A stretch of 51,020 nucleotides of DNA. Origin: Candidatus Gastranaerophilales bacterium. Lineage in GTDB: Bacteria; Cyanobacteriota; Vampirovibrionia; Gastranaerophilales; Gastranaerophilaceae. The position numbers and the translations under genes are program-made. The notes beneath the pieces were generated by a model that had not been told where the DNA came from, did not search any database, and was given only the letters and a program-made list of their open reading frames with translations. Position 1 is the first letter of the stretch; each line of letters starts with the position of its first letter. Positions 2,445 through 34,870 of this stretch are shown here, piece after piece. The stretch is from assembly GCA_944322755.1 (NCBI GenBank), contig CALUPY010000019.1, positions 1-51,020 of the forward strand. The letters are read 5' to 3'.

Positions 2445-3050
2445 ATGGATATTAGTATATCACATAATTCTGGTCACGAGGATTTTTCAATACAGGATGA
2501 ATTTCCGCAGCATTTATGCAAAATGTGCGGTAAATGTTGCAAAGCAATAACTACGCCTTATACTTATGAAGAACTTGTACAGCTTGCGAAAGAAGGGCAG
2601 GAAGAGGCTAAAGTTTTTGTCGAAGTCTTTAAACGCTATCCGTCTGTTGAAGCAGCCCGTGCAGCTGTTCCTGATCATGTAGATAACATTATTGAAATAT
2701 TAAAAAAGAAAGAAGACTTTGATTTATCAAAAATAACTTTTTACTATTGCCCACATTTGACAGAACAAAATACATGTGCAATTCACCCTACAAGACCTGA
2801 CTGTTGCAGGCGTGCCCCAAGAAACGGCTGGTCCATTTTTCCACCAGGTTGCGGGTTTAAGGGTTGGCAGTTTATGCAAAAAGAACGAGTAAAGGAAACT
2901 GTAAGAAAACTTAAAGAATATATGCTTGAACTTGATTTGCTTCCGCCTGATTATGTTATCCCGACCAGAAATGTTACCGCCTCAGAGCTGAAAAAAATTA
3001 TAGAAGACAGAATAAAACCCTGGGAAAAATACGGCGCTGATTTATGGTAA
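2445..3050 (+). CDS. YkgJ-family cysteine cluster protein (paralogue 1)
   Basis: The family is a small cytoplasmic Cys-rich domain thought to bind zinc or an iron-sulfur cluster; its biochemical role is not established. The 201-aa protein shows the characteristic layout: an N-terminal CKMCGKCCK, then YYCPH, then TCAIHPTRPDCCRRAP and a final PPGCGFK. I start at the ATG at 2445 because a strong promoter places the transcript start exactly there; a TTG eight codons upstream lies inside that promoter. It is monocistronic, divergent from the nucleotidyltransferase gene. A second copy of the family lies at 6253. Confidence 0.85.
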   Translation: MDISISHNSGHEDFSIQDEFPQHLCKMCGKCCKAITTPYTYEELVQLAKEGQEEAKVFVEVFKRYPSVEAARAAVPDHVDNIIEILKKKEDFDLSKITFYYCPHLTEQNTCAIHPTRPDCCRRAPRNGWSIFPPGCGFKGWQFMQKERVKETVRKLKEYMLELDLLPPDYVIPTRNVTASELKKIIEDRIKPWEKYGADLW

Positions 3051-3149: not shown

Positions 3150-4421
3150 ATGTTAAAAAAGACCGCATATTTACTTATAATTTTTATTTTAAGCTTTATT
3201 CTGTTTAACTACCTGTCAACACAATCTACGCAGGAAAATCAGGATACTTTATCAAATGCATCCTTTTTAATTAACAAACAGTCAACTGATCCCAAACGTT
3301 TGTTTTTAAAAACGTGGCGTATTGTAAAAAGCAAATACTATGATCCCACTATGAATAATCAGGATTGGTCCAGATGGAACAAACGCTATGTCGACAGAAT
3401 AAAAACACAGGATGATGCAAATGTTGCAATAGACACAATGATTGCAAGCCTAAATGACCCATATACCCAGTTTTTAGACAAAGAAGAATACAAAGAACAA
3501 ACAACAAGCATTGATGCAAAAATTACCGGTATAGGCGTAAATATAATATCTCTTGACGGTAATGTGCTTATCGTCAGTGTCGTCGAAGACACTCCCGCTG
3601 AAGAAAACGGATTAAAAGCTGGAGATATTATTTTAAGCGTGAACGGTAAAGAAGTCAGAGGAAAAACAGTCAGCGATGTAGCTGCCCTTATCCGTGGCAA
3701 AGAAGGCGATTCTGTCAAAATTGAACTTCTCCGGGATAAAACTAAACTGACAAAAAATATTACAAGACGAGAAATAAAAATAAAAAGTGTAAAAACAAAA
3801 ATTCTTGACAAAACTATTGGCTATGTTCAAATTAGTAGTTTTATCAGCGGTGATGTTACTAAAGAATTTATTGAAGCTCTTACCAAAATCCAGAACTGCG
3901 ACGGTTTAATTTTGGATTTGAGGGGCAACACTGGCGGTCTTATGCCTAATGCAGTATTTATTGCAGATATGTTTTTAACAGAAGGACACATCGTTAGTAT
4001 TGTCGACAGAAACAAGCAGCGCTCTGATATAGATGCACAGAAAAAGCCGTATTCAATTAACAAACCTGTTGTAATACTTGTTGACCAGGCTTCTGCAAGT
4101 GCATCAGAAATTCTCGGTGCAGCGCTGAAAGAAAACAGAAAAGCTATACTTGTCGGAGAACGTACTTTTGGTAAAGCAATGATACAAAGAATAATTCCGC
4201 TTCCAAATGAAACAGGATTAAATCTCACCATAGCAAAATATCTTACCCCCAAAGGTCATGATTTAAATAAGAACGGAATAACTCCGGATTACATCGTCTC
4301 ATATACGGAGCAGGATTTCTTAAAAAACAAAGATCCACAGCTTGATAAAGCGAAAGACATACTAAAAAATTTAATAAAAACAAAACAACAAAATCATCAT
4401 GAATTGGCGAGGCTTAAATAA
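3150..4421 (+). CDS. ctpA: S41-family C-terminal processing peptidase (CtpA/Prc-type)
   Basis: A serine protease that trims C-termini of envelope proteins. The 423-aa protein has an N-terminal hydrophobic segment (about 5-24) that acts as signal or anchor, a PDZ domain (about 115-200, with a TGIGVNI start and GLKAGDIILSVNG) and the S41 catalytic domain. The catalytic serine is probably S317 in SASASE and the lysine K342 in FGKAMIQ. Their spacing of 25 residues equals that of E. coli Prc. The conserved ILDLRGNTGG is present. No clear Shine-Dalgarno precedes the ATG. It sits between the YkgJ gene and the coiled-coil gene and is probably transcribed alone. Confidence 0.92.
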   Translation: MLKKTAYLLIIFILSFILFNYLSTQSTQENQDTLSNASFLINKQSTDPKRLFLKTWRIVKSKYYDPTMNNQDWSRWNKRYVDRIKTQDDANVAIDTMIASLNDPYTQFLDKEEYKEQTTSIDAKITGIGVNIISLDGNVLIVSVVEDTPAEENGLKAGDIILSVNGKEVRGKTVSDVAALIRGKEGDSVKIELLRDKTKLTKNITRREIKIKSVKTKILDKTIGYVQISSFISGDVTKEFIEALTKIQNCDGLILDLRGNTGGLMPNAVFIADMFLTEGHIVSIVDRNKQRSDIDAQKKPYSINKPVVILVDQASASASEILGAALKENRKAILVGERTFGKAMIQRIIPLPNETGLNLTIAKYLTPKGHDLNKNGITPDYIVSYTEQDFLKNKDPQLDKAKDILKNLIKTKQQNHHELARLK

Positions 4422-20740: not shown

Positions 20741-20781
20741 GGCACTGTGAGCACCGTGCCGCATCAATGACACGGTGCTCG
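20741..20781 (+). terminator. Alternative hairpins between xis and int (terminator or attenuator)
   Basis: A perfect 10-bp inverted repeat (20749-20758 with 20771-20780) is followed by a T-rich stretch. An overlapping second hairpin GGCAC/GTGCC (20741-20745 with 20756-20760) uses part of the same left arm, so the two are mutually exclusive. This could limit read-through into the integrase gene. Confidence 0.55.
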
Positions 20782-20873
20782 TTGTGTTTAATGAATTTAA
20801 ATTAGCAAATATTTGCAATATGGCTTACAAATCTGTATACACTCGACATAATGAAATAAAGGAACAAAAACAA

Positions 20874-21983
20874 ATGGCAATAAGAAAAAATAAAAAGACG
20901 AATAAGTGGGAATTTGATTACAAAGACCTTAGAGGCAAACGGCAAATAAAGAAAGGTTTTAAAACCAAAGCAGAAGCAGAAAGAGCTTATAATAAAATGG
21001 TTGAAGATTTGAACAAAGGTTTAAATCCCGTTAATGCAAAAATGTCATTAAAAGAAGCTGGCGAGTTATATTTACGACTTCACGCAAGTTCAAATTGCAA
21101 ACCTTCTACTTACAAAACTTACTGCGGATACTTGCAAAATCTATTAGTTCCATTCTTTGGCAAGCTAAACATCAATGAAATCAGTCCTATACTTGTAAAA
21201 GAATTCATAAAACAAATGCAAGACAAAGGACACCAAAATTCAACAATCAACAAATACGTAAAATTCATAAGTGCAATCTATAACTTTATGATAGACAGTG
21301 ACGCAGCAACAAGAAATCCTATTGCAAGAATCAAATCATTAAAAGAAGTTAAAAATGATAAGATTAGAGCTTTATCAACAGAAGAAGTTCAGGCTTTATT
21401 AGCTAAAACAAAAGTTGTTTATCCAGATTTCTATCCACTATTGTTTACAGCTTTATTTACAGGTATGAGACGAGGGGAATTGTTGGCTTTAACTTGGGAT
21501 TCGATAAATTGGGTAACAGGTAAAATCACAATCGATAAAAACTATGTTAATGGAAGGTTGGGGACGCCAAAATCAAGCAAAACCAGATATGTTGATATGA
21601 GTAGTGAATTAGCAAGAGTGTTAAAAGAATGGAAACTTGCTTGTCCTCATAGTGAAATAAACTTGGTGTTTCCAAATACTGAAGGAAAATATCAAAGTGC
21701 AGATAATATGATAAAAAGAAGATTTATACCTTCATTAAATCGCGCCGGCATTGATTTAATTCGTTTCCACGATTTAAGACATACTTATGCCAGTTTGCTT
21801 CTTGCCAACGGCGCCCCAATGAAGTATGTTCAGACCCAACTGGGACACGCTTCAATCACTATGACAATGGACTTATATACCCACTTGTTGCCAGAAGTTA
21901 ATGATAAATGTGTGAATCTATTAAATAACATTGTTAATTCAACAATTACGTCCAAAGAAGAAATTAAAAGATTTGGGACTTAA
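20874..21983 (+). CDS. int: Tyrosine recombinase (integrase)
   Basis: It catalyses integration and excision of the element at tRNA-fMet. The 369-aa protein has an N-terminal arm-binding (AP2-like) domain starting AIRKNKKTNKWEFDYKD, a SAM-like core-binding domain (about 55-150) and a catalytic domain. The catalytic residues are R in TGMRRGELLAL, HDLRH (H-x-x-R), H in LGHAS and the tyrosine in MDLYTHL. I choose the ATG with AAAGGA upstream; an open stretch of 33 codons before it lacks one. A 12-bp palindrome GCAAATATTTGC (20805-20816) lies in the leader. The gene is convergent with the HNH-like gene (4-nt overlap). Confidence 0.95.
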   Translation: MAIRKNKKTNKWEFDYKDLRGKRQIKKGFKTKAEAERAYNKMVEDLNKGLNPVNAKMSLKEAGELYLRLHASSNCKPSTYKTYCGYLQNLLVPFFGKLNINEISPILVKEFIKQMQDKGHQNSTINKYVKFISAIYNFMIDSDAATRNPIARIKSLKEVKNDKIRALSTEEVQALLAKTKVVYPDFYPLLFTALFTGMRRGELLALTWDSINWVTGKITIDKNYVNGRLGTPKSSKTRYVDMSSELARVLKEWKLACPHSEINLVFPNTEGKYQSADNMIKRRFIPSLNRAGIDLIRFHDLRHTYASLLLANGAPMKYVQTQLGHASITMTMDLYTHLLPEVNDKCVNLLNNIVNSTITSKEEIKRFGT

Positions 21984-24184: not shown

Positions 24185-24337
24185 AGAAGCGAAATCGGTC
24201 GGGCACGCCGTGGCGAAGCCCCAGTGCCCAAGCGTAGTCGGTCGAAGAAACGGAGAAATTCGGAGAATTTCGAAGTGAGAAGTAAGACCGACGAAGCGTC
24301 CGTATTTCAAGAAGCGAAATCGGTCGGGCACGCCGTG
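24185..24337. repeat. GC-rich structured element bounded by a 28-bp direct repeat
   Basis: The same 28 bases (24185-24212 and 24310-24337) enclose a hairpin-rich core in otherwise AT-rich DNA. Stems include GGGCAC/GTGCCC (24201-24206 with 24224-24229), GTCGGTC/GACCGAC (24237-24243 with 24286-24292) and GAAATTC/GAATTTC (24255-24261 with 24265-24271). No coding frame is evident. It looks like a dispersed palindromic repeat, MITE-like unit or structured RNA. Confidence 0.6.
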
Positions 24338-30953: not shown

Positions 30954-31949
30954 TTATATTTTATATAAAAATTCGAATCCCAGGATTTTGATTATTTTTT
31001 TATGCTTTTTCCAGTGGATTTCAACAATTCTTTTCATCAGTTGTTTTTGTCCAAAGTGTAAATCTTCAAAAAGTTTATTCTTTAAATAATTTTTGAAAAA
31101 CAGCGCAAAGAATGGTGTCCGTTTGTAGACAAACTCCCACCATTCTTTGGAATAGTTTATGTATAAACTATTCCAAGGTTTCCTGCCTGTATAATGAATG
31201 ACTGCGGGTGCAGCTTTTAGCTGAGAAAATTCTTCAGATGTAATTATACCTTCTTTAAGCGCCTTTCTGTATGTATAAGAGTCCGGGCAGTCTATTATAT
31301 TAAATCGGGTAGGGAGATATGTTACAAGGTTTTTACAGGTGATGTTTAATATGTCTTGATCCTGGAAGAAGAGTTTTTCTGCACTCCAGGGCAGCCAGGT
31401 TTTTTCCATTTCTTTCTCCCTGATTTTTTTCAGATTCATAACCATAAAGCCTGTATTAAAATATTGCCCTCTCATATCAGAAAGATGTTCTTTCCAGAAT
31501 GGATATTTTAGATTTTTTTCAAAATTTTCTTCCAGATTGTTGCGCACTGATTTTACTGCAGCAAAAAGATAATCGTCAATATCTGTGTCCCAGGCTTCTT
31601 TTAAGCTGCCTTTGAATATAATGTCCACATCAGAGTATATGATTTTATCTATATCCGGTAAAAATTTATGCAGCAGAAGACGACCGTAAGTGGCTTTTGA
31701 TAAACCTCGGGATTCATAAGTATTATCGAAAATTTTCCCTATTTCGACAAAAGTCACTGTCGACAAGGGGCTGTTTTTTTTCACAAGATTTTTTATTGTA
31801 TTTTTTGCTTTATCTGTAACATCCTCTGTGCAAAGGCAAAAGATATTATAAACCTCTGCTTTTCCTGCATTTAAGAGGCTGCAGATGGTTGTGACGCCCT
31901 GTCTCCAGTAGTTGTTGTCAAAAGAAAATGCAATATTTATCTCAGTCAT
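30954..31949 (-). CDS. Glycosyltransferase family 8 protein
   Basis: A retaining glycosyltransferase using UDP-sugars, usually in lipopolysaccharide or capsule synthesis. The 331-aa protein begins INIAFSFDNNYW, has the DxD motif in KIIYSDVDIIFKGSL, GQYFNTGFMVMNLK and, near the end, VIHYTGRKPW, all hallmarks of GT8. The ATG is preceded by GAGG and overlaps the upstream epimerase gene by 8 nt, so it is the last gene of a coupled three-gene operon. The sugar is unknown. Confidence 0.9.
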   Translation of the reverse strand: MTEINIAFSFDNNYWRQGVTTICSLLNAGKAEVYNIFCLCTEDVTDKAKNTIKNLVKKNSPLSTVTFVEIGKIFDNTYESRGLSKATYGRLLLHKFLPDIDKIIYSDVDIIFKGSLKEAWDTDIDDYLFAAVKSVRNNLEENFEKNLKYPFWKEHLSDMRGQYFNTGFMVMNLKKIREKEMEKTWLPWSAEKLFFQDQDILNITCKNLVTYLPTRFNIIDCPDSYTYRKALKEGIITSEEFSQLKAAPAVIHYTGRKPWNSLYINYSKEWWEFVYKRTPFFALFFKNYLKNKLFEDLHFGQKQLMKRIVEIHWKKHKKIIKILGFEFLYKI

Positions 31950-32898
31950 TTTGTTCCTCAATCCATTTTACAAATTTTTTGATACCTTCTGTGAATGATG
32001 TTTCAGGGTGATAATTCAACAGTGCTTCTGCTTTTGTTATGTCAGAGACTGTTTTGTCGACGTCGCCCTTTTGCATTGGCATTCTGTTTATGATTGCTTT
32101 TTGGTGAAGGTTGTTTTCGAGTTCTTCTATCATTCTGCTAAGTGTGACAGGCTCGCCGCCTCCGATATTTATTATTTCGTAGCCTGTTTTGTTGTACTCA
32201 ATTGCGGATATAACCCCATGGATTATGTCATCAACGTATGTGTAGTCTCTTTTTGTGTGACCGTCTCCGAATACGGGGATGGGTTTTCTTTCTTTGATAA
32301 GTCTTGCAAATTTATGGATAGCAAGATCCGGTCTTTGTCTCGGGCCGTATACAGTGAAGAATCTTAATGCGACTACATTTATGCCGTATAGTTTGTGATA
32401 TGTATAGCAAAATTGTTCACATGCGGATTTTGTAGCCGCATAAGGGGATATGGGTTCTGATATCTTGAGGTCTTCACTGAAGATGCTTTCCTTACAGTTT
32501 CCGTATACGGAACTTGAGGATGCAAATACAAGTTTTTTAACATTGTATTCTTTCATTAGTTCAAGAATATTTATTGTTCCGAGAATGTTTGTTTTTACGT
32601 ATCCTTCCGGATTCTCAATAGACGGTCTGACTCCTGCTCTTGCTGCAAGATGGACAACAACGTCTATTTTGTTATTTTTAAATACTTCGCCAATCTCTTT
32701 TTTATTTTCTATATTGGCTTTGTAAAAAGAGTAGCGGCTGTTTTTTAAGTTATGTTTAATATTCTGTTGTTTTATTTCAGGTGAATAAAAATCACTCATA
32801 TTGTCGATAACGATGATATGAGTGTCATTTTTTAGAAGTTTGTCCGCAAGATGAGAACCGATAAAACCGGCTCCGCCCGTTATGAGTATAGTTTTCAT
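31942..32898 (-). CDS. NAD-dependent sugar-nucleotide epimerase (UDP-glucuronate 4-epimerase-like)
   Basis: An extended short-chain dehydrogenase that interconverts NDP-sugars. The 318-aa protein has GGAGFIGSH (NAD binding, residues 8-16), the ASSSSVYG serine segment and the catalytic YAATK. NMSDFYSPEIKQQNIKH and FFTVYGPRQRPDLAIHKF match the uronate or UDP-hexose 4-epimerase branch. It overlaps the DUF616 gene by 4 nt (ATGA) and the GT8 gene by 8 nt, so all three are translated together. It presumably supplies the activated sugar to the transferases. Confidence 0.88.
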   Translation of the reverse strand: MKTILITGGAGFIGSHLADKLLKNDTHIIVIDNMSDFYSPEIKQQNIKHNLKNSRYSFYKANIENKKEIGEVFKNNKIDVVVHLAARAGVRPSIENPEGYVKTNILGTINILELMKEYNVKKLVFASSSSVYGNCKESIFSEDLKISEPISPYAATKSACEQFCYTYHKLYGINVVALRFFTVYGPRQRPDLAIHKFARLIKERKPIPVFGDGHTKRDYTYVDDIIHGVISAIEYNKTGYEIINIGGGEPVTLSRMIEELENNLHQKAIINRMPMQKGDVDKTVSDITKAEALLNYHPETSFTEGIKKFVKWIEEQND

Positions 32899-33734
32899 TT
32901 GTTGTGAACCCTCAATATTATATCTTTATGCATTTTTCTTACCGGTTTTTCGAAAATATCAGTGACTGTTCCGTAGTTGTTTTTCCATAAAACATACATA
33001 AGGCTCAGCTGGTCTCTTTTTGAATAATTAGCAAGCCAAAACCACCAGTCTTCCATTATTTTTATTATTTCAGGTGAGTTGTGTTCTCTGAAAATGATAT
33101 TGTTTTCTTTTAGTCCGTAGTGCGCGGGAAATCCGTCTTTTCTGAATATTTCTATCTGTTTTTCTGTATTTTCGACAGTATCTTTACCTTTCTTAATACA
33201 AACTTCCCTTTCATCATAGAGACAGTCTCTGCAAAAATGTTTTGTTATCGCCAATTTTTTACCGTTTTTTATTAATTCTTCTGCTTTTCGGTAGATTTTG
33301 TCAGAGATGATATCTATATTTGCATCAATGTAGATACTGTATTTGTATTCAGAAAGAAATTTGTGGGCAAGAATTTTGGGCAGTCTTGATTTTTTCTGGT
33401 CGTCAAGTTCCATTTCTGACTTTATCGGCTGAACTATCCAGAACGGATGGCCGTTTTTTAACAAATCTTCATTATTCGTAAAACAAATATAATTCCAGTC
33501 CTGCTCATAACACAAAGGGGTGATTAAATCGTTGTATGTTCCGGTTATTACAGTGTAAACGACTTTGTCTGTTTTTGTGCTGTTTGTATTAATTTTACCG
33601 GAGTTAAAAAGGCGGCGCAAAATTAGAGGATATGCTTTTAGCGGATATCCAAAGAAGAACAGTTTTTTGTTCAATAATAACCGGTTCGTTTTGCCCGGAA
33701 CCAGTGATATTAAAATTTTGACTAATCTATTCAT
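32895..33734 (-). CDS. DUF616 / TOD1-MUCI70-type glycosyltransferase domain protein
   Basis: The 279-aa protein shows the whole DUF616 pattern: VVYTVITGTYNDL, WNYICFTNN, RLPKILAHKFLSEYKYSIYI followed by DANIDI, KHFCRDCLYDEREVCIKKGK and WWFWLANYSKRDQLSLMYV. This domain is a predicted GT-A-like sugar transferase. First gene of the sugar operon. A TATAAT lies 16 nt before the ATG and an AAAGAAG acts as ribosome-binding site. Confidence 0.82.
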   Translation of the reverse strand: MNRLVKILISLVPGKTNRLLLNKKLFFFGYPLKAYPLILRRLFNSGKINTNSTKTDKVVYTVITGTYNDLITPLCYEQDWNYICFTNNEDLLKNGHPFWIVQPIKSEMELDDQKKSRLPKILAHKFLSEYKYSIYIDANIDIISDKIYRKAEELIKNGKKLAITKHFCRDCLYDEREVCIKKGKDTVENTEKQIEIFRKDGFPAHYGLKENNIIFREHNSPEIIKIMEDWWFWLANYSKRDQLSLMYVLWKNNYGTVTDIFEKPVRKMHKDIILRVHNK

Positions 33735-33775
33735 ACTTCTTTGTATGAATATTATAACGTGAAACAGGAAAATGT

Positions 33776-33805
33776 AAAGAAAAACGGCTGTAAAGCCGCT
33801 GTTTC
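33776..33805. repeat. 30-bp direct repeat flanking the zeta-toxin cassette (left copy)
   Basis: Exactly identical to 34743-34772. It contains a CGGCT/AGCCG hairpin with T-rich sequence on the minus strand. Unlike the right copy, its outer flanks do not pair. Confidence 0.8.
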
Positions 33806-33864
33806 AAAAAAATAATCTTTAAATATTTAATGCAAAAAAATTTAAAGACTGATAAAATTTTATT

Positions 33865-34476
33865 ATGCAGAGCAAAGAAAAATTATTGTATATTATTGCA
33901 GGTGCCAATGGCAGTGGAAAAAGTACTCTGGCTGAGGTTTTGTTAAGAGAAAAAAATCTGGTGTTTCTAAACGCCGATGAAATAGCAAAAGAAATTGCAC
34001 CTGATGCAATGAATAGTGTGCAAATATCTGCAGGAAAAGAGTATTTCAAACGATTAGAAACCTTTCTTGCGCAAAACATGTCTTTTGCCGTGGAGTCTAC
34101 TCTTTCCGGAAATAATATTGTTAGAGTTATAAAAAAGGCAAAAAATCGATATTACAAAATTATATTAATTTATTCTTTTTTACAAAGCTGCACAACCTGT
34201 ATTAAGCGCGTTAAAACCCGTGTTCAAAATGGTGGTCATGATGTTCCGGAAGAAGATATTATTCGCAGATATTACAAAAGTATTGTTAAATTTTGGGATG
34301 AATATCGTTTAATGGTTGATGATTGGACTTTGTTTTATAATGGCTATGACTATGCACCTGTAGTGGTGGCTTTTGGTACAAATGATAAATATGATATAAT
34401 TAATAAAGGCAAGAATGATTTATTTCACAATGTGTACAAAATTGCAAAGGATGAAATAAAAATCTATGACAGGTAA
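33865..34476 (+). CDS. Zeta-toxin-like P-loop kinase
   Basis: The 203-aa protein has Walker A AGANGSGKST (residues 12-21), then NADEIAKEIAPDA, FAVESTLSG and RVKTRVQNGGHDVPEEDIIRRY. This is the pattern of zeta toxins and related UDP-GlcNAc or small-molecule kinases, which can poison peptidoglycan synthesis. The neighbouring small gene overlaps its last 11 nt and is a candidate antitoxin, although classical epsilon antitoxins are encoded upstream. The cassette is bounded by identical 30-bp repeats. A non-toxic kinase role remains possible. Confidence 0.8.
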   Translation: MQSKEKLLYIIAGANGSGKSTLAEVLLREKNLVFLNADEIAKEIAPDAMNSVQISAGKEYFKRLETFLAQNMSFAVESTLSGNNIVRVIKKAKNRYYKIILIYSFLQSCTTCIKRVKTRVQNGGHDVPEEDIIRRYYKSIVKFWDEYRLMVDDWTLFYNGYDYAPVVVAFGTNDKYDIINKGKNDLFHNVYKIAKDEIKIYDR

Positions 34477-34663
34477 AGATGCTTTAGAATTGTTGAATAT
34501 GTTTACAACTGCTGTTCAAATTGCAAAATCAAAAAATAAAAATGAATGTAATGAAAACTTGGATGAAGCTGCATTAAATGAATTATTTAAAAAAGCGTTT
34601 CCCTTTTTACAAGATGATGCAAATAGGCAAAGTATAATAAAAAAAATGTTGTCTAACGGTTAA
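34466..34663 (+). CDS. Small partner of the zeta-like kinase, possible antitoxin
   Basis: A 65-aa helical protein with no recognised domain. Its ATG lies inside the last codons of the kinase gene (11-nt overlap), so translation is coupled. Position, size and coupling suggest a partner or antitoxin; the sequence itself does not prove it. Confidence 0.6.
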   Translation: MTGKDALELLNMFTTAVQIAKSKNKNECNENLDEAALNELFKKAFPFLQDDANRQSIIKKMLSNG

Positions 34664-34740
34664 TCTTTTTTATAAACTGTAAAAGATTTTTTAAATTTTT
34701 TTAAATCCGAAACATTTGCTACTTTCACAAAAATATCTTT

Positions 34741-34777
34741 CAAAAGAAAAACGGCTGTAAAGCCGCTGTTTCTTTTG
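34741..34777. terminator. Bidirectional terminator containing the right 30-bp repeat
   Basis: CAAAAGAAA (34741-34749) pairs fully with TTTCTTTTG (34769-34777) around an inner CGGCT/AGCCG stem. It can end the kinase cassette on the plus strand and tRNA-Gln on the minus strand. Bases 34743-34772 repeat 33776-33805. Confidence 0.8.
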
Positions 34778-34783
34778 AAAAAA

Positions 34784-34854
34784 CTCCCAGACATGGATTC
34801 GAACCACGATTAGATGATCCAGAGTCACCTGTCCTGCCGTTAGACGATCTGGGA
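34784..34854 (-). tRNA. tRNA-Gln (CTG)
   Basis: A 71-nt cloverleaf: acceptor TCCCAGA/TCTGGGA, anticodon stem GGTGA/TCATC with loop CTCTGGA giving anticodon CTG, and T-arm with TTCGAAT loop. CCA is not encoded, unlike the two other tRNAs in the window. A terminator-like hairpin separates it from tRNA-Asn upstream. Confidence 0.88.
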
Positions 34855-34870
34855 ATATTCAGTTTTTACG

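What the first reader, a model, noticed from the sequence alone, without database searches (positions are those of the whole stretch)
33776..34772. Zeta-toxin-like cassette between exact 30-bp repeats of a tRNA terminator
The right repeat is part of a functional bidirectional terminator after tRNA-Gln, and the left copy has lost the outer pairing. The 1-kb kinase/small-protein cassette thus looks inserted at the terminator, duplicating it, in a way that mirrors the tRNA-fMet element but without a recombinase of its own.
Basis: partly seen in the sequence, partly recalled or inferred. Interest (0 to 1): 0.55.

Follow-up and report, generated by a model that had tools for sequence, protein, structure and literature searches.

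The report
Toxin-antitoxin cassette between duplicated terminators
In an uncultured gut bacterium, a two-gene toxin-antitoxin-like unit of about one kilobase appears to have been dropped behind a tRNA gene, copying the target DNA on both sides although it carries no enzyme for moving DNA; similar arrangements at unrelated sites in relatives suggest that such gene pairs may spread as bare mobile units.

Summary
An exact 30-bp direct repeat (33776-33805, 34743-34772) flanks a zeta/PezT-like kinase gene and a 65-aa partner gene. Its 22-bp core occurs nowhere else in the 2.19-Mb genome, even allowing 3 mismatches. Named relatives are Candidatus Gastranaerophilales MAGs. In relatives the same two-gene unit is flanked by direct repeats that differ from site to site (22-264 bp): 25 of 76 loci, against 2 of 314 control placements in the same loci. 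The repeats copy local DNA: tRNA/tmRNA 3' flanks, terminators, a promoter, 3' ends of protein genes. Cassette-free sites in congeners show insertion with target duplication at two loci; a third shows loss by recombination between the repeats. The window cassette holds no recombinase or transposase. The partner gene behaves like an antitoxin. The closest known phenomenon is 'insertion with long target duplication', described for restriction-modification systems; finding it for a kinase toxin suggests that the module's own nuclease is not needed. The window site has no empty sister; its congener G003 has a defence island there. The mechanism (host repair, or a recombinase acting in trans) is unresolved, and 51 of 76 loci show no repeat.

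The parts
33776..33805 (.). Left copy of the 30-bp direct repeat; terminator core (AGCGGCTTTACAGCCGTT then T-rich on the minus strand)
   Evidence: orthologue in G003 at L074 about 3013-3045
33850..33865 (+). Extended -10-like sequence TGATAAAAT six bases before the zeta ATG; suggests a promoter carried by the cassette and a very short or absent leader (inference)
   Evidence: sequence; similar spacing by eye in relatives; not among the sites listed
33865..34476 (+). Zeta/PezT-like kinase gene (203 aa), putative toxin
   Evidence: invariant NGSGK-T, NAD, E-T-G, R-RV-GGH, D-RR over 28 sequences; model pLDDT 89 with best PDB matches AvrRxo1, PezT, zeta
34466..34663 (+). 65-aa partner gene overlapping the end of zeta; putative antitoxin (family A)
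   Evidence: three-helix model, pLDDT 74; no fold match at E<=0.001
34743..34772 (.). Right copy of the 30-bp repeat, inside the tRNA-Gln terminator hairpin
34783..34855 (-). tRNA-Gln(CTG), whose 3' flank is the target
   Evidence: orthologous tRNA-Gln/tRNA-Asn pair in G001, G002, G003

Best explanation
The window carries a bare toxin-antitoxin gene pair (a zeta/PezT-like kinase and a small antitoxin) that was inserted into the 3' flank of tRNA-Gln. The insertion duplicated 30 bp of target DNA, the terminator, on both sides: an 'insertion with long target duplication'. The unit that moves is little more than promoter plus two genes, mostly about 0.8-1.2 kb, with no recombinase. It is taken up and inserted by general host recombination or repair at unrelated sequences, tolerated where nothing essential breaks (behind tRNA/tmRNA genes, at terminators, at gene ends, between promoter and gene). 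It persists because losing the partner while the toxin stays is harmful, and it can be lost cleanly by recombination between the repeats. Shown: the repeat and its uniqueness; recurrence with different repeats above controls; cassette-free sites with one copy at two other loci; a loss at one; partner kept when the toxin is lost. Inferred: toxin activity, antitoxin action, addiction, and the molecular route of insertion (staggered break with fill-in, or homology-assisted illegitimate joining).
For: (1) Direct repeats enclose the zeta unit in 24 of 76 loci vs 1 of 236 control placements, and in 25 of 76 vs 2 of 314 with wider windows (Fisher p about 1e-17). (2) 22 repeat sequences compared pairwise share no common core; mean similarity is only slightly above shuffled (5.75 vs 5.59, sd 0.07), through a few pairs. 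(3) Cassette-free sites with one full repeat copy: L081 (tRNA-Asn terminator) in G084, G133, G383; L106 (3' end of the small gene before mraW) in G364, G305, G111, G339. (4) Loss: at the permease (BPD_transp_1) site G204 has one repeat and no cassette, with flanks 99.2% and 97.5% identical to L095. Outgroups show that its left neighbour is the derived one, so it looks like recombination between the repeats. (5) In pairs of loci at different sites, homology ends within about 150 bp of the two genes. (6) In 26 of 26 genomes with a near full-length A-type zeta the partner is present, whereas 10 of 39 genomes with the partner have no zeta at E<=1e-25. G173, G201 and G275 keep the partner at the permease site after losing most of zeta. 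(7) The same sign at another toxin family: 3 of the 30 ParE loci fetched (37 places found), one in this genome.
Against: There is no empty site for the window itself. 51 of 76 loci show no repeat. tRNA/tmRNA genes, a known target of tyrosine recombinases, are over-represented near the cassettes (17 vs 7.3 expected), although only 6 of the 24 repeat-flanked loci have one close by. Four A-type loci share a fixed left boundary, 106 bp before zeta, at a tRNA-Asn-3'-end-like sequence, which looks more site-specific than random. At the permease site the right repeat is preceded by 18-43 bp of sequence that matches outgroups, so this is not a textbook target duplication. In L138, L122 and L133 the two copies differ, which could mean a copy brought from a donor. 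In L094 the repeat belongs to a tandem array, so it is no clean case. In G084 and G133 a shorter piece of the tRNA-Asn end is itself repeated. Control placements are mostly in ordinary genes, not in accessory genes that are not toxins.
Confidence: 0.58

Rival explanations
1. Mini-element mobilised in trans: the repeats are attL/attR sites of tyrosine recombinases encoded elsewhere, and the cassette is a CIME-like non-autonomous unit.
For: tRNA/tmRNA genes are over-represented near cassettes. L134 sits at a tmRNA gene, and L136 and L131 by eye at a decayed tmRNA end. A fixed tRNA-Asn-like left edge occurs in L077, L079, L081, L082. A tyrosine integrase lies in the window (20775-21983), and a 116-aa Phage_integrase piece lies in the G003 island at this site. 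Swapped module order at tmRNA ends in G001/G002, by eye.
Against: No shared core among 22 repeats. Repeats include a promoter-like stretch with start codon (L095), protein-gene ends (L106, L138, L122, L133) and terminators without tRNA sequence (window, G054). Length varies from 22 to 264 bp.
Confidence: 0.25
2. Erosion remnant: a large island (as in G003) once lay between the repeats and shrank to the toxin-antitoxin pair, which cannot be deleted easily.
For: The orthologous interval in G003 is a defence island: HipA next to the left terminator, an IrrE-like protein, a reverse transcriptase, Mrr, type I restriction-modification, Mu-type transposase and TniB.
Against: Homology between copies ends near the gene pair. 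Random erosion should leave more varied lengths.
Confidence: 0.1
3. Chance or assembly artefact: two similar terminators that happen to flank the gene pair.
For: Both copies are terminator hairpins; nearly all loci come from metagenome assemblies.
Against: Exact 30-mer, unique in the genome; control placements 2 of 314; the same 42-bp arrangement in two separately assembled genomes, L095 and L100.
Confidence: 0.03

Closest known systems
Insertion with long target duplication of restriction-modification systems (Nobusato et al. 2000; Furuta et al. 2010; both known here only through citing passages read in PMC3874152 and PMC3031569)
   Same: Small selfish gene module without recombinase, flanked by long, variable direct repeats of target DNA; insertion inferred from genome comparison.
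   Different: The module is a kinase toxin with a small partner, no nuclease; repeats here are often 22-95 bp (PMC3874152 says of the order of 100 bp); several lie at tRNA 3' flanks; another host lineage.
epsilon-zeta / PezAT toxin-antitoxin systems
   Same: Zeta fold and P-loop kinase residues; two-gene operon; model matches PezT and zeta in the PDB.
   Different: Short toxin (about 185-205 aa); partner gene downstream, not upstream (epsilon/PezA order recalled); the 65-aa partner has no good match to PDB folds and none to Pfam above cut-off.
CIMEs / tRNA-integrating elements (recalled)
   Same: Direct repeats, in part at the 3' side of tRNA genes; no recombinase.
   Different: Repeat sequences without a common core; a promoter-like stretch and protein-gene ends among the targets.

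Membership tests
Zeta/PezT kinase family | Sequence profile above the curated cut-off | tested here: met
   Zeta_toxin 37.1 bits (cut-off 22.3), AAA_33 41.3 (27)
Zeta/PezT kinase family | Fold and P-loop/catalytic residues | tested here: met
   Best PDB matches AvrRxo1, PezT, zeta, E about 3e-7 to 5e-6; invariant N15-K19, D38, E77, R115, R119, R134, R135; role of each residue recalled
Zeta/PezT kinase family | Phosphorylates UDP-N-acetylglucosamine and is toxic | not testable with these tools
   needs an assay
Two-gene toxin-antitoxin module | Conserved small partner beside the toxin | tested here: met
   76 of 80 loci: 53 by motif (22 A, 31 B) and 23 more by eye; 4 without, being cut or broken
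Two-gene toxin-antitoxin module | Partner can outlive the toxin, not the reverse | tested here: met
   26 of 26 vs 10 of 39; decayed toxin beside intact partner in G173, G201, G275, G030, G032; contig ends may hide some
Two-gene toxin-antitoxin module | Partner neutralises the toxin | not testable with these tools
   needs co-expression
Insertion with long target duplication | Long direct repeats of target DNA, different at each site | tested here: met
   25 of 76 loci vs 2 of 314 controls
Insertion with long target duplication | Empty site with one copy in a relative | tested here: met
   met at L081 and L106; not available for the window site
Insertion with long target duplication | Module is a restriction-modification system | tested here: not met
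   kinase plus small protein, so it works like these insertions but is not one of the described modules
Integron gene cassette | Recombination site shared between cassettes (attC-like) | tested here: not met
   no common core among 22 repeats
Insertion sequence / transposon | Transposase and terminal inverted repeats | tested here: not met
   two ORFs, neither a transposase; none of the 17 inverted-repeat pairs listed lies at the two cassette ends
CIME / tRNA-integrating element | Repeats are sites of a recombinase acting in trans | tested here: inconclusive
   tRNA bias for; no shared core and 18 of 24 repeat loci without a tRNA gene close by against

The most novel reading that the evidence does not exclude
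Toxin-antitoxin gene pairs that cut no DNA behave as stand-alone mobile units: they insert as bare two-gene fragments with long duplications of arbitrary target DNA by host processes, spread through addiction alone, and leave cleanly by recombination between the duplicates. The long-target-duplication route known for restriction-modification systems would then be a general route for addictive modules, independent of any nuclease.
Probability: 0.4. Interest if true: 0.75.

Novelty: new variant of a known kind. Interest (0 to 1): 0.6.

Why it matters
For restriction-modification systems two roles of their own cutting in movement have been proposed: the breaks drive the movement, or killing merely selects the cells in which the module moved (PMC3031569, passages read). 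A kinase toxin that shows the same long-target-duplication pattern argues for selection over cleavage, and these cassettes give many small, comparable cases. It would also explain how chromosomal toxin-antitoxin pairs appear in places with no mobile element near them. The review passage that I read says that the mobility of both kinds of system is often ascribed to carriage by other elements, and names only restriction-modification systems as moving unlinked to any (PMC3874152, passages).

Tried and rejected
Common-terminator explanation: rejected. Direct empty site for the window: not found; G001 and G002 have other sequence left of tRNA-Gln and other terminators, G003 has an island. Reading G204 as the ancestral empty permease site: rejected, because outgroups L190 and L191 show that the sequence left of the repeat in G204 is derived, so it is better read as a loss. 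L127 (tRNA-Pro): its repeat is the 3' flank of tRNA-Pro in congeners G252, G381 and G321, with no zeta match in the stretches fetched, but the right flank lies elsewhere, so no clean empty site. G187 has the left flank of L081 and a repeat copy on one contig with other DNA between them; not analysed further. Phage or plasmid carriage: 1 weak viral contig, 4 phage records, 463 plasmid records, all below 60% identity; no evidence that this cassette travels on them. Partner-gene fold: no match at E<=0.001. Naming the neighbours: the 109-aa gene at L106 is ftsL by position only, and the left neighbour in G204 looked Cas9-like by eye; neither has a Pfam match at E<=0.001. Searches for earlier reports (most lists capped at 15 of up to 2,044 papers) listed no paper whose title or abstract start describes toxin-antitoxin insertion with long target duplication. 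Only those listings and passages of PMC3031569, PMC3874152, PMC2654758 and PMC4978471 were seen. Furuta 2010 is not held; Nobusato 2000 was seen only as a citation.

Full report
OBSERVATION. The window lies in a 2.19-Mb, 43-contig genome. Close relatives found with the toxin gene are mostly named Candidatus Gastranaerophilales. An exact 30-bp direct repeat (33776-33805 and 34743-34772) encloses a 203-aa kinase gene and a 65-aa gene. The kinase passes the Pfam cut-offs for Zeta_toxin and AAA_33. Its model (pLDDT 89) is closest in the PDB to AvrRxo1, PezT and zeta. The repeat core is unique to these two places in the genome with up to 3 mismatches. The right copy is the centre of the tRNA-Gln terminator hairpin; the left copy keeps only the core stem.

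THE SITE IN CONGENERS. G003 keeps the left flank (glycosyltransferase genes plus an orthologue of the left terminator; 78% identity over window 31401-33804) on one contig and tRNA-Gln/tRNA-Asn/RmuC on another. The stretches next to the two flanks carry HipA, an IrrE-like protein, a reverse transcriptase and Mrr on one side, and type I restriction-modification genes, a 116-aa Phage_integrase piece, a Mu-type transposase and TniB on the other. That both belong to one interval is inferred, since the contigs are not joined. The interval therefore looks like an integration hot spot. The left terminator was already beside the glycosyltransferase gene in the common ancestor, and it lacks the outer arms there too. 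G001 and G002 have other sequence and other terminators beside tRNA-Gln. No direct empty site is available for the window.

RECURRENCE. A scan of species genomes gave 140 relatives of the kinase, of which the best 80 loci were kept. 72 of 383 genomes of the order hold one at E<=1e-25, in 26 of 52 genera. Of 76 loci with both flanks, 24 have a direct repeat around the unit at score 18 or more, against 1 of 236 placements elsewhere in the same loci. With wider windows it is 25 of 76 against 2 of 314, and 3 of 30 for ParE-family toxins, one of them in this very genome (30 loci fetched of 37 places; Fisher tests). 51 of 76 show none. With exact repeats of 20 bp or more at 400-2500 bp spacing, 26 of 80 loci enclose the unit, 19 of them at 804-1217 bp; 9 loci have other such repeats. 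The repeats include a tmRNA end (L134), tRNA-Pro and tRNA-Phe flanks (L127, L153), a terminator plus tRNA-Asn end (L081), a promoter-like stretch with start codon (L095, L100), and 3' ends of protein genes (L106; by eye L138, L122 and the uvrA-like gene of L133). 6 of the 24 have a tRNA or tmRNA gene close by. In G054 a terminator is copied on both sides much as in the window, after a gene that I read by eye as an aminotransferase. In G006 a 40-bp repeat lies next to tRNA-Lys. L095 and L100 are one inherited site, L131, L134 and L136 are one type, and L094 lies in a tandem array, so loci are not all independent or clean. Among 22 repeat sequences no common core exists; similarity is slightly above shuffled (mean 5.75 vs 5.59, sd 0.07), with two pairs at score 13, L081 with L077 and with G006.

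CASSETTE-FREE SITES. (a) L081, an A-type cassette whose zeta is 81% identical to ours, sits at tRNA-Asn. G084, G133 and G383 have the 95-bp terminator unit once in full, joined to tRNA-Asn, and no cassette between (90%, 77-81% and 77-79% identity over the unit and the 56 bp before it). In G084 and G133 a shorter piece of the tRNA end is itself repeated, so the site has seen other events, and L081 has a further 173 bp before tRNA-Asn. (b) L106: of 29 congener loci compared, four (G364, G305, G111, G339) join its left flank directly to the end of the small gene before mraW, with one copy; in the rest the left flank did not align in that way. The left copy in L106 has drifted. (c) L095/L100: G204 has one copy and no cassette, with flanks 99.2% and 97.5% identical. 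Outgroups L190 and L191 carry, left of the repeat, the sequence that in L095 stands left of the right copy; no zeta lies in L190-L192. G204 is therefore best read as recombination between the two repeats that removed the cassette. G173, G201 and G275 keep only the end of zeta and the whole partner gene at this site.

WHAT MOVES. Where copies at different sites are compared (pairs at 80% identity or more), homology ends within about 150 bp of the two genes; L095/L100, which share the site, are the exception. The genes follow an extended -10-like box about six bases before the ATG, read by eye. No recombinase or transposase is in the window's cassette.

TOXIN-ANTITOXIN LOGIC. 76 of 80 loci have a small downstream gene, of family A (as here) or the dissimilar family B: 53 by motif and 23 by eye. 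In 26 of 26 genomes with near full-length A-type zeta (identity 64% or more; one has a stop codon) the A-type partner is present, whereas 10 of 39 genomes with the partner have no zeta at E<=1e-25 (recounted). Toxin decay beside an intact partner is seen in G030 and G032 too. This polarity fits toxin and antitoxin. It is indirect, and contig ends can mimic loss. The partner model is a three-helix protein of modest confidence with no PDB match at E<=0.001.

MECHANISM. The best reading is insertion with long target duplication, as described for restriction-modification systems (passages in PMC3031569 and PMC3874152). Steps shown: duplication of target DNA, absence of an own recombinase, gain at two sites, loss at one. 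Steps inferred: entry as a bare fragment, joining by host repair, retention by addiction. The main rival is a tyrosine recombinase acting in trans. It is favoured by the tRNA bias (17 tRNA/tmRNA genes near cassettes, 7.3 expected, p 2e-4) and by the constant left edge in L077, L079, L081 and L082, and disfavoured by the lack of a common core and by promoter-like and gene-end targets.

VERDICT. A real feature, best read as an insertion; a new variant of a known kind, because the module is a nuclease-free toxin-antitoxin pair. Its molecular route is open.

Noticed in passing
G000:C36:1-900 (L310, L251): A ParE-family toxin gene with an upstream small gene in the same genome is flanked by an exact 42-bp direct repeat (805 bp apart), the same arrangement as the zeta cassette.
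   Followed up: partly
   Followed up: partly
window 24185-24212 and 24310-24337: Exact 28-bp direct repeat, 125 bp apart, between the listed ORFs.
   Followed up: no
L058 6450-8436 and L060 1-1700: At the tmRNA 3' end of G002 and G001 the zeta module and another gene module stand in opposite order, separated by tmRNA-end-like repeats, like a shuffled array (by eye).
   Followed up: no
L188 (G204) and L185/L187/L189: A large gene, Cas9-like by eye but without a Pfam match, borders the permease insertion site; in three sister genomes this flank and most of the toxin are gone while the partner gene remains.
   Followed up: partly
L067 (G030) 3160-3484: In-frame internal deletion leaves a 47-aa zeta remnant beside an intact partner gene, still between imperfect direct repeats.
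   Followed up: no
L077, L079, L081, L082 (zeta -106): Four A-type cassettes share a left edge at the same distance from zeta, at a tRNA-Asn-3'-end-like sequence.
   Followed up: partly
L062 and L063 (G006, G032): The string AAGGCTCTGCCTTGTGGTTCTC occurs beside the zeta unit in both genomes, so it may be a dispersed repeat of the lineage.
   Followed up: no
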